Shown: positions 24,405 through 50,239 of the stretch, piece after piece | Position numbering within the stretch: the stretch's first letter is position 1 | Layout: each line of letters starts with the position of its first letter | From: Rhodococcoides kyotonense | GTDB taxonomy: Bacteria; Actinomycetota; Actinomycetes; Mycobacteriales; Mycobacteriaceae | NCBI RefSeq assembly: GCF_900188125.1 | Contig: NZ_FZOW01000013.1 | Coordinates: 1-64,000, forward strand | Direction: 5' to 3' | DNA: 64,000 bases | Translations under genes and position numbers: made by a program | Notes under the pieces: model-generated | Told to the model about the DNA's origin: nothing | The model's input: only the letters and a program-made list of their open reading frames with translations | The model's database searches: none

Positions 24405-24476
24405 GAAAAACCTCCTCTATTTGGGATCCGAACCCCCTGCAGAGGGTTCGGATCCCAAATAGAGGAGGCTATTTTC
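24405..24476. repeat. 72-bp palindromic repeat, family A copy 3
   Basis: Arms of about 30-32 bases (24405-24434 and 24445-24476) with a 10-base loop containing CTGCAG; the arms share CCTCCTCTATTTGGGATCC with the other copies. The right arm includes part of the minus-strand TGA stop of folD (24475-24477), so the element forms the immediate 3' end of folD and could terminate its transcript. It is about 13 kb from copies 1 and 2. Confidence 0.9.
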
Positions 24477-25323
24477 ACCGAACGTCAGCCAGGGCCTTCG
24501 CAGCCTGAACTGTCTGGTCGAGCAGCACTGCGATTGTCATCGGACCGACCCCTCCTGGAACCGGAGTGATGAGGCCGGCGCGCTCGGCCGCGGCGCTGAA
24601 TTCGACGTCGCCGATATTGCCCTCGTTGTACCCCGCGTCGATGACGACGGCTCCCGGCTTGATCCAGTCGCCGCGGATGAACTCCGGCCGCCCGACAGCT
24701 GCAATGACGACATCCGCGCGTCGGACCTCGTCGGCGAGATCGGTGGTTTTGGAGTGACAGAGAGTGACTGTGGCATCGGCGGCAAGGAGCAACATCCCGA
24801 CGGGTTTGCCCAGGATTGGGCTCCGGCCGATGACCACGGCGGATGCGCCGGCGAGCTGGACGTTGTCGGCGTCGAGGAGTCTCATGATTCCGCCGGGAGT
24901 GGCGGAGCTGAAGCCGGGCTCACCGAAAGCCATCTGCGCGAACGACGTTCGCGTCACGCCGTCGACATCCTTGCGTGGATCGATGGCTTCGAATGCCGCG
25001 CGCTCGTCGATGTGTGCGGGGACCGGGTGCTGAAGCAGAATGGCGTCGACTGCCGGGTCGGAGGAGAGGTCGTGGAGGACCGACAGTAGTTCGCCCGTCG
25101 TGGTCGACTCGGGGAGGTCGATGCGACGCGAATCGATCCCGACTTTCCGCGAACGGTTCACCTTCATGCGTACGTAGACGTGCGAGGACGGGTCGTCGCC
25201 GACCAGGACCGTCGCGAGGCACGGCTTACGTCCGGTCGATGCGGCGAAGTCGACTGCCTCAGCGGAGACGGTCTCCAACGTGGATGCGGCGAGGGAAACG
25301 CCGTCGAGCAATCTTGCGGGCAT
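24475..25323 (-). CDS. folD: Methylenetetrahydrofolate dehydrogenase/cyclohydrolase, divergent FolD
   Basis: 282 residues, the usual FolD length. It should interconvert 5,10-methylene-, 5,10-methenyl- and 10-formyl-tetrahydrofolate in the cytosol. The catalytic Tyr-x3-Lys segment is present (VYVRMK), as are AIDPRKDVDG and the NADP-binding VVIGRSPILGKPVGMLL and the late TPVPGGVGPMTIA. Several normally fixed positions differ: QHPVP where FolD usually has QLPLP, DGVTR for DGFHP, and SATPGG for PCTPxG. It therefore looks like a second, diverged FolD rather than the housekeeping copy. A ZTP riboswitch directly precedes it. Confidence 0.88.
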   Translation of the reverse strand: MPARLLDGVSLAASTLETVSAEAVDFAASTGRKPCLATVLVGDDPSSHVYVRMKVNRSRKVGIDSRRIDLPESTTTGELLSVLHDLSSDPAVDAILLQHPVPAHIDERAAFEAIDPRKDVDGVTRTSFAQMAFGEPGFSSATPGGIMRLLDADNVQLAGASAVVIGRSPILGKPVGMLLLAADATVTLCHSKTTDLADEVRRADVVIAAVGRPEFIRGDWIKPGAVVIDAGYNEGNIGDVEFSAAAERAGLITPVPGGVGPMTIAVLLDQTVQAAKALADVR

Positions 25324-25327
25324 GCAG

Positions 25328-25420
25328 TTCTCCGCTCTGTGCGGAGAACGCCCAGGCGGACGACGTCCTCGACTTCACTCCCCGGTAGTTCCCTACCTGC
25401 GCCAGTCGTGTCGGTTCGAC
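25328..25420 (-). promoter_or_regulatory. ZTP (pfl) riboswitch with SD-sequestering hairpin
   Basis: On the minus strand the leader of folD carries the conserved pieces of the ZTP/ZMP aptamer in order: GACTGGCG, a short hairpin closed by GGTAGGGAACTACC, GGGGAGTGAA, then after a linker CCGCCTGGGCG (25349-25359). Directly after the aptamer a hairpin (arms TTCTCCGC 25341-25348 and GCGGAGAA 25328-25335) holds the GGAG ribosome binding site, six bases from the ATG. No U-run follows, so control of translation start is the likely mechanism. ZTP binding should raise FolD synthesis when 10-formyl-folate is short. Confidence 0.88.
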
Positions 25421-48523: not shown

Positions 48524-50239
48524 CTATTTGATCGTGTAGCGGCGGCCCAGAGGGACACGCGTCATGGGCTGGCTGGTGCATACTTCGCCGTCGACCTCGA
48601 CTCGATAGGTGTCGGGGTCGATGGAGATCGAGGGCAGGTAGTCGTTGTGCAGCAGAGACGATTTGCTCAGTGACCGTGCGCCGATGCAGGGGACGAGCGG
48701 AGTATCGAGTCCGAGGCGGTCACCGAGGCCATCGGCGATCGCTGCCTGTGCCACGAAGTTGACCGAGACGTCCGACGGTGTCTTACCGAATGCTGCCCAT
48801 TGTGGGCGGTACTTCAGCGGCTCGCAGGTCATCAGTGACGCGTTCGATTCGCCCATGACCGACCATGCGGGAAACCCTCCTTTGAACACGACTTCGGGAC
48901 GAATGCCGAAGAATTTCGGGTCCCACAGCACGATGTCGGCCATCTTGCCGGGTTCGAGTGAACCGACCGTGTGATCGATGCCGAACATGCGTGCTGGGTT
49001 GATGGTGATCTTGGCGAGGTAACGCAGGATTCGTGCATTGTCGGCGCCAGTGCCGACATCGGCGGTCAAAGGGCCGCGAGTTGCCCGCATATGAGATGCC
49101 AACTGCCATGTGCGAGCGATGGTTTCACCGATTCTCCCCATGCCCTGGGAATCCGATCCCATTGCCGAGATGGCACCCATGTCGTGCAGAACATCCTCTG
49201 CTGCAATGGTTTCGCGGCGGATTCGTGATTCGGCGAACGCGACGTCCTCGGGAATTCGTGGATTCAGATGGTGGCATACCATCACCATGTCGAGATGCTC
49301 GTCGAATGTGTTGCGGGTATAAGGATTCGTGGGATTGGTCGACGACGGTAGGCAGTTGCTCTCGCCGACGACGCGCATGACGTCCGGCGCGTGGCCCCCG
49401 CCTGCGCCTTCGGCGTGATACGTGTGGATGACGCGTCCGGCGATGGCGCGCATCGTGTCCTCGAAGAACCCTCCTTCGTTGAGGGTGTCACTGTGAATCT
49501 GTATTTGCAGATCGAGTTCGTCACCAGCGTCGAGCGATGCACGGATCGCGGCCGCGGTGGCGCCCCAGTCCTCATGGATCTTGAATCCGATCGCACCGGC
49601 AAGGCCCTGCTCGACGATCGGCGCTGGATCTGCGGCGCTTCCGTTGCCGAGGAATCCGAAGTTCATCGGGAACGCCTCGACCGAGCGCATCATGCGTGCG
49701 AGATTGTTCGGACCCGAGCTGGTGATGCCGACAGTGACCGGACCGAGGCCGCCGCCGATCATCGTCGTGATGCCGCTGGAGATCGCTTCCTCGACAAGTC
49801 CGGCACTGTCGAAATGCACGTGTACGTCGATGGCTCCGGCTGTGGCGATCATGCCTTCACCGGATCGAACGTCGGTACCGGCGCCGATGATCAGATTCGG
49901 ATCGACACCGTCCATCAATCGTGGGTTGCCGGCGTTGCCAACCCCGGCAATGACGCCGTCCTTGATCCCTATGTCGGCCTTGCGAATTCCGAGTACCGCG
50001 TCCATGACGAGGACGTTCGTGATGACGAAGTCGAGCGCACCGTCCTCGTTGGTGATCGAATTGTGAACGGCCATGCCCTCGCGCATGGTCTTACCGCCGC
50101 CGAAAACTGCTTCGTCGCCGTAGACGGTGTCGTCGCGCTCGACCTTCGCTATGAGGTCGGTATCGGCAAGCCGAATTCTGTCGCCGACAGTGGGGCCGAA
50201 CAGCTCGGCATAGTGGCGTCGAGAAATGCGGAGCGCCAT
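48524..50239 (-). CDS. ureC: Urease alpha subunit UreC, divergent type
   Basis: 571 residues from ATG 50239, with GAAGGAGG upstream. All nickel and catalytic residues are in place: His140 and His142 (DVHVHF), carbamylated Lys220 and His222 (FKIHEDWG), His249 ([10 protein letters not shown]), His275 ([13 protein letters not shown]), flap Cys322/His323 (MVCHHLNP) and Asp363 ([10 protein letters not shown]). The loop after HVHF reads DSAGLVEEA instead of the classical ICPQQ type, and the GTHATTCTPGPW-type segment is replaced by [12 protein letters not shown] and is three residues shorter. It may be a true urease of a separate clade or hydrolyse a substituted urea. Confidence 0.93.

What the first reader, a model, noticed from the sequence alone, without database searches (positions are those of the whole stretch)
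24475..25420. ZTP riboswitch controlling a divergent FolD through the ribosome binding site
The folD leader has the conserved ZTP aptamer blocks (GACTGGCG, GGGGAGTGAA, CCGCCTGGGCG), followed directly by a hairpin whose 3' arm is the GGAG site. The FolD itself departs from the family at QHPVP, DGVTR and SATPGG, so this is likely a second FolD that is switched on when 10-formyl-folate is short. Known: ZTP riboswitches often control folate and purine genes. Inferred: translational mechanism and paralog status.
Basis: partly seen in the sequence, partly recalled or inferred. Interest (0 to 1): 0.72.

Follow-up and report, generated by a model that had tools for sequence, protein, structure and literature searches.

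The report
ZTP riboswitch on second FolD
A soil actinobacterium carries a spare copy of a folate enzyme behind an RNA switch that probably turns it on when formyl-folate runs low; switches of this type on this gene are already known, but the spare copy proves to be an accessory gene that is usually found with its switch, also on plasmids.

Summary
Window 25343-25419 (-) matches RF01750 at 45.4 bits (cut-off 39) and is the only ZTP riboswitch found in this Rhodococcus-like genome. The gene behind it is a FolD. A second, canonical folD lies elsewhere in the genome (46% identical), so the paralog claim passes its own test.

P3, extended to 9 bp, shares six nucleotides with a 9-bp hairpin holding GGAG, 6 nt before the ATG, so the two exclude each other. 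The layout recurs in 16 of 25 related folD leaders, with co-varying P3 pairs. I infer a translational ON switch, the counterpart of the known terminator switch. There are no ligand or expression data.

The 'divergent' motifs mark a FolD subfamily that includes Acinetobacter baumannii FolD, PDB 4b4u. In 401 family genomes, 25 of its 28 closest genes have the riboswitch directly upstream; each of the 24 genomes holding them has another folD match. Five of seven plasmid copies fetched have it.

ZTP with folD was in print in 2010. New member of a known kind; what is added is the accessory, mobile ZTP-folD2 unit and the covariation support for its switch.

The parts
25343..25419 (-). ZTP/ZMP riboswitch aptamer (RF01750), with GACTGGCG, GGGGAGTGAA and CCGCCTGGGCG; GGCG of the first block and CGCC of the last are complementary, as the known pseudoknot needs
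   Evidence: cmscan 45.4 bits, gathering 39; only match in the genome; the pseudoknot complementarity is read from the sequence
25344..25370 (-). extended P3: 5' arm GAGGACGUC (25370-25362), 9-nt loop GUCCGCCUG (25361-25353), 3' arm GGCGUUCUC (25352-25344); Rfam draws only 5 bp
   Evidence: 9 of 9 positions pair in the window; co-variation over 12 distinct P3 sequences
25327..25349 (-). Shine-Dalgarno-sequestering hairpin: GUUCUCCGC (25349-25341), loop ACAGA (25340-25336), GCGGAGAAC (25335-25327); 25349-25344 also belong to P3
   Evidence: z -3.17 against dinucleotide shuffles; a stem at this place in 16 of 16 hairpin-type folD leaders
25330..25333 (-). GGAG ribosome binding site, inside the 3' arm of the hairpin, 6 nt before the ATG
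   Evidence: sequence; predicted unpaired fraction 0.00 free, 0.52 with extended P3 forced
24475..25323 (-). folD2: second methylenetetrahydrofolate dehydrogenase/cyclohydrolase, 282 aa, QHPVP/DGVT/SATP subfamily
   Evidence: Pfam PF00763 and PF02882; nearest solved structure 4b4u; dN/dS about 0.1 by a simple Nei-Gojobori count against L017
24410..24469 (-). likely intrinsic terminator directly after folD2: 28-pair hairpin with 4-nt loop, followed by a T run
   Evidence: -57.1 kcal/mol for 24405-24480, z -11.3, 0 of 200 shuffles as good

Best explanation
This is a translational ZTP/ZMP riboswitch that turns on an accessory second FolD. Without ligand, the strand GUUCUC leaves P3 and completes a 9-bp hairpin that buries the GGAG site, so folD2 is poorly translated. 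When 10-formyl-THF runs short, ZMP/ZTP accumulates and binds the aptamer. Extended P3 (GAGGACGUC/GGCGUUCUC) is then locked, the hairpin loses six of the nine bases of its 5' arm, and the ribosome reaches GGAG. FolD2 then converts methylene-THF to 10-formyl-THF; no formate-THF ligase was found in this genome, so FolD is the likely main source. Shown by computation: the aptamer match, the second folD, the exclusive pairings with co-variation, the recurrent riboswitch-folD2 pairing and the plasmid copies. Inferred: ligand binding, direction of switching, translational level, enzyme activity and physiological role.
For: Aptamer above threshold. Two folD genes in the genome; no PF01268 match. P3 positions 1-8 pair in 90% of cells against 35-49% when slid; positions 4-8 pair in 83% against 70% when the 3' arms are permuted, 0 of 2000 permutations reaching the native value (12 distinct leaders). 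A stem of 6-11 bp sharing 2-8 nt with P3 in 16 of 16 hairpin-type leaders. The predicted unpaired fraction of the SD site rises on forcing extended P3 in 16 of 16. No T run follows the stem in the window. Riboswitch directly upstream of 25 of 28 folD2 genes. The published C. beijerinckii switch uses invasion of P3, with a terminator instead (PMC10085676, passages). Purifying selection on folD2.
Against: No ligand or expression data. P1 is weak and the aptamer stretch alone folds no better than shuffles. In the energy model, which knows no pseudoknot or ligand, the P3 state of the window is 10.9 kcal/mol worse than the hairpin state, so switching must be kinetic or strongly ligand-driven. The rise of SD accessibility is partly built in, because the two stems overlap. 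Permuted P3 arms still pair in 70%, so part of the signal is sequence conservation. 9 of the 25 folD2 leaders do not use this hairpin.
Confidence: 0.8

Rival explanations
1. The hairpin acts at transcription: ligand-free RNA forms a terminator-like stem, or exposes a Rho site, before the coding region, and translation is not the primary step.
For: The best-studied ZTP switches are terminators (PMC10085676, passages). Loss of translation could also reduce mRNA through polarity (recalled).
Against: No T run follows the stem: the sequence is UGCAUGCCCGC. The 3' arm lies about 1-10 nt before the start codon in 16 of 16 leaders (one start, L088, was placed two bases too far in that call), as expected for burying the ribosome site.
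Confidence: 0.12
2. The riboswitch is degenerate here: the weak P1 no longer binds ZTP well and folD2 is simply kept low by the hairpin.
For: 45.4 bits is near the low end for folD2 relatives (up to 56.9); four non-standard P1 pairs. Decay occurs in the genus: an aptamer without folD in G022 (L006), a split folD2 in G023, and a 28-residue remnant in G031.
Against: The conserved blocks are intact, and both exclusive stems are kept over 81% DNA identity with R. yunnanensis. FolD2 is under purifying selection.
Confidence: 0.12
3. FolD2 does not mainly supply 10-formyl-THF: it runs towards methylene-THF, or serves methyl-group breakdown as in the purU operons.
For: A close relative sits in a pabB / aminomethyl transferase / metF / purU / folD2 operon on a Rhodococcus opacus plasmid (L151).
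Against: That copy has no ZTP match, while the stand-alone copy in the window has one and no such operon around it. Published ZTP targets make or use 10-formyl-THF (PMC2864571, passages).
Confidence: 0.15

Closest known systems
ZTP/ZMP riboswitch, pfl motif (RF01750) on folD
   Same: Aptamer above the curated threshold; folD, purH, fhs, pfl and glyA are the genes named for the motif in 2010 (PMC2864571, passages read).
   Different: Here it stands on an accessory second folD and the expression platform hides the ribosome site; that paper stresses overlapping terminators in many cases.
Clostridium beijerinckii pfl ZTP riboswitch
   Same: An expression-platform strand competes for the 3' strand of P3, and ligand locks P3 (PMC10085676, passages read).
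   Different: There a terminator forms; here a stem over GGAG, with P3 lengthened to 9 bp.
Acinetobacter baumannii FolD (PDB 4b4u, 4b4v, 4b4w)
   Same: Best PDB match (E 1.8e-91); shares QHPVP, DGVT and SATP.
   Different: A different lineage of the same subfamily. That it is that organism's ordinary FolD is recalled, not checked.
Canonical FolD of the same genome (G000:C47)
   Same: Same two domains; Tyr, Lys, Gln and Asp of the active site are in both (alignment; residue roles recalled).
   Different: 46% identity; QLPLP and PCTP motifs; other side of a 100/99 supported branch; none of the 64 family ZTP sites is the upstream partner of a gene of this type among those inspected.

Membership tests
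ZTP/ZMP riboswitch (RF01750) | covariance-model score at or above the gathering threshold | tested here: met
   45.4 against 39 bits
ZTP/ZMP riboswitch (RF01750) | conserved blocks and the GGCG/CGCC pseudoknot complementarity | tested here: met
   read from the sequence and the Rfam alignment
ZTP/ZMP riboswitch (RF01750) | well-paired P1 | tested here: inconclusive
   four pairs marked non-standard in the alignment
ZTP/ZMP riboswitch (RF01750) | binds ZMP/ZTP | not testable with these tools
   needs in-line probing
translational riboswitch | aptamer helix and SD-sequestering stem mutually exclusive and conserved | tested here: met
   six shared nucleotides in the window; 2-8 shared in 16 of 16 hairpin-type leaders; P3 co-variation
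FolD (methylenetetrahydrofolate dehydrogenase/cyclohydrolase) | both Pfam domains above cut-off | tested here: met
   PF00763 119.9 bits against 32.8; PF02882 197.7 against 27
FolD (methylenetetrahydrofolate dehydrogenase/cyclohydrolase) | active-site Tyr, Lys, Gln, Asp (roles recalled) | tested here: met
   YVRMK, QHPVP, KDVDG align with the same residues of 4a5o and of the genome's own FolD
FolD (methylenetetrahydrofolate dehydrogenase/cyclohydrolase) | reaches the cut-off of an NCBIfam FolD model | tested here: not met
   30 models match; none of the 25 shown reaches its cut-off, best 365.8 against 475. These are narrow lineage models, so this bars naming a lineage, not the enzyme family
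FolD (methylenetetrahydrofolate dehydrogenase/cyclohydrolase) | dehydrogenase and cyclohydrolase activity | not testable with these tools
   needs enzyme assay

The most novel reading that the evidence does not exclude
The riboswitch and folD2 form one mobile unit: a self-contained, folate-stress-induced back-up FolD that moves among Actinobacteria on plasmids and insertion-rich DNA, is gained and lost quickly, and supplies 10-formyl-THF when the housekeeping FolD is limiting or inhibited, perhaps because its altered folate pocket escapes natural FolD inhibitors. When a copy is drawn into a methyl-group breakdown operon the riboswitch is dropped.
Probability: 0.25. Interest if true: 0.6.

Novelty: new member of a known kind. 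Interest (0 to 1): 0.38.

Why it matters
It gives a clean comparative case for how a ZTP riboswitch controls translation: the same six bases belong either to the aptamer or to the stem over the ribosome site. It also shows a riboswitch that goes with an accessory isozyme and was not found on the housekeeping copy, which makes the back-up-enzyme idea directly testable by deleting folD2. The link of ZTP with folD itself is not new.

Tried and rejected
Divergent or degenerate FolD: rejected. The odd motifs are subfamily motifs shared with 4b4u and with actinobacterial, proteobacterial, acidobacterial and Chloroflexota relatives, the active-site residues are kept, and selection is purifying.

A rule that ZTP riboswitches in this family always sit on spare copies: tested and not upheld. 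All 4 of 4 genomes with a ZTP-linked AICARFT gene have another, full-length match. But in 3 of the 7 genomes tested with a ZTP-linked glyA, the linked SHMT is the only match (G098, G332, G324).

A cassette that crosses phyla with its switch: not supported. The Variovorax plasmid copy does have a ZTP match, but in the tree it groups with proteobacterial and acidobacterial relatives, which points to a separate association. The eight subfamily loci from Pseudomonadota, Acidobacteriota and Chloroflexota (L048-L055) gave no ZTP match at the gathering score, although L054 has only 175 bases and L049 only 568 upstream.

Transcription terminator as platform: see rivals. A structure prediction was not run, because good solved relatives exist.

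Paper searches: no held paper has both 'ZTP riboswitch' and 'Rhodococcus'. A search for FolD2 gave seven papers; passages of one (PMC11064299) say that most bacteria have a single FolD, with exceptions. The 2015 ligand paper of Kim and colleagues is recalled only; it is not held.

Full report
The window comes from a Rhodococcus-like genome. The closest named record for this gene is Rhodococcus yunnanensis (86% protein identity), and the DNA around it is collinear with the window at 72-84% in four blocks. The genome itself is unnamed.

Observation. RF01750 matches 25419-25343 on the minus strand at 45.4 bits, gathering score 39. It is the only match in the genome. The open frame 25323-24475 is a FolD by both Pfam domains. 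Another FolD lies at G000:C47:2998-3828, 46% identical. No formate-THF ligase match was found in the genome (PF01268), while PurH and two SHMT matches are present.

Anatomy of the switch. Rfam draws P3 with five pairs. Counting outwards from the constant nine-nucleotide loop, the window pairs at 9 of 9 positions: GAGGACGUC (25370-25362) with GGCGUUCUC (25352-25344). The bases 25349-25344 (GUUCUC) are also the first six of GUUCUCCGC, which pairs with GCGGAGAAC (25335-25327). That second stem contains GGAG, six nucleotides before the ATG. The two stems cannot coexist in full. The hairpin region folds far better than shuffles (z -3.17), the aptamer stretch alone does not (z 0.08), and the whole leader is intermediate (z -1.40).

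Comparison. I collected 63 of the 64 ZTP sites found in 401 genomes of the family (one search used strict filters, so the counts are lower bounds). Twenty-five sites stand directly in front of an intact folD2. Sixteen of these 25 have a hairpin of 6-11 bp just before the start codon that shares 2-8 nucleotides with the 3' arm of P3. Among the 12 distinct P3 sequences of this set, positions 1-8 pair in 90% of cells, against 35-49% when one arm is slid. Positions 6-8, mostly beyond Rfam's P3, pair in 75% against 39-58%. For positions 4-8 the native arms pair in 83%, permuted arms in 70% on average, and 0 of 2000 permutations reach the native value. Forcing extended P3 raises the predicted openness of the SD site in 16 of 16, from 0.00 to 0.52 in the window. 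This is partly a consequence of the overlap. In that model the P3 state is 10.9 kcal/mol less stable in the window, without pseudoknot or ligand.

The other nine folD2 leaders differ. In eight of them the SD site reads CCAGGAG, whose CCAGG is complementary to the conserved CCUGG of the aptamer core, so there the core itself may hide the site; the ninth (L072) has a separate small hairpin. Most of the nine come from one genus, so this is one or few events.

Link with the paralog. In 401 genomes, 28 FolD matches score 262 bits or more to the window's FolD. Twenty-five have a ZTP match within 94 bases upstream on the same strand, in 24 genomes. Three do not: G279:C5, G035:C6 and G343:C42. A search at E up to 1 of the loci of those three found none either. 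Each of the 24 genomes has at least one further folD match. Within the genus, 8 of 37 genomes have any ZTP match. FolD2 is split in G023, reduced to 28 residues in G031, and the aptamer stands without folD in G022, which looks like fast turnover.

Tree. In a tree of 66 FolD proteins the subfamily with the window forms a 43-row side with support 100/99, apart from the canonical Rhodococcus FolDs. The ZTP label needs 5 changes, against 21.8 in shuffles. L047, labelled as without ZTP, has a ZTP match just under the threshold (37 bits), so the true number may be lower. L046 and L017 appear to be one strain. Copies without ZTP (L018, L126, L151, L153) group together (90/84). L151 lies in an annotated pabB / aminomethyl transferase / metF / purU / folD2 / dioxygenase operon on a Rhodococcus opacus plasmid.

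Plasmids. The FolD finds 333 plasmid records, 12 of them at 60% identity or more. I fetched seven of the 30 listed. Five have a ZTP match just upstream: R. qingshengii, Rhodococcus sp. 2G, R. pyridinivorans, Streptomyces aurantiacus and Variovorax paradoxus. Two do not: R. opacus and R. koreensis. Transposase genes lie within 4 kb in three of the five. The Variovorax copy groups outside the actinobacterial ones and is probably a separate association.

The enzyme. QHPVP, DGVT and SATP are shared with the A. baumannii FolD of PDB 4b4u, the best PDB match, and with relatives from several phyla. Active-site Tyr, Lys, Gln and Asp are kept (roles recalled). A simple count gives dN/dS of about 0.10 against L017 and 0.08 against L148, the latter with near-saturated dS.

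What is known. The 2010 paper that described the pfl motif already names folD, purH, fhs, pfl and glyA (PMC2864571, passages). Invasion of P3 by the expression platform is established for the C. beijerinckii terminator switch (PMC10085676, passages). I found no held paper with both 'ZTP riboswitch' and 'Rhodococcus', but most subscription papers are not held.

Conclusion. The finding is right and mostly ordinary. What is added is the exact shared strand with covariation support, the near-constant pairing of riboswitch and accessory folD2, and its presence on plasmids.

Noticed in passing
window 24410-24469: A 28-pair hairpin with a 4-nt loop and a T run follows folD2 (z -11.3). It is outside the block that is similar in R. 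yunnanensis and is unusually long for a terminator.
   Followed up: partly
window 49786-50087 (+): Rfam 5_ureB_sRNA matches at 52.3 bits, but antisense inside an ORF (48524-50239, -) that reads as the urease alpha subunit (by eye). Probably an echo of protein conservation, not a small RNA.
   Followed up: partly
L090, L099, L102, L106, L107, L111-L119: In one genus of the family (g8), 14 of the 64 ZTP sites precede an NDH-2-like flavoprotein (by eye; one representative, L090, confirmed as Pyr_redox_2). Why a folate-stress switch should control it is unexplained.
   Followed up: partly
L008, L010, L012, L014, L093, L100, L103: Seven ZTP leaders precede what looks like one GNAT acetyltransferase family (by eye; L008 confirmed; L100 shows no open frame). 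A possible unknown step in ZMP or folate metabolism.
   Followed up: partly
L009, L013: Two ZTP leaders precede a BenE-type benzoate transporter (L009 confirmed). Import of a benzoate-like folate precursor such as p-aminobenzoate is a guess.
   Followed up: partly
L121 2364-2442 and 8306-8382; L011, L079, L084, L085: A stand-alone AICAR transformylase-like gene follows a ZTP match in four genomes, in one of them (G036) about 6 kb from ZTP-folD2. The window's genome has no such second copy.
   Followed up: partly
L069, L070, L071, L074, L080, L082, L083, L109: In these eight folD2 leaders the ribosome site CCAGGAG is complementary to the conserved CCUGG of the aptamer core, a second possible way to hide it.
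   Followed up: partly
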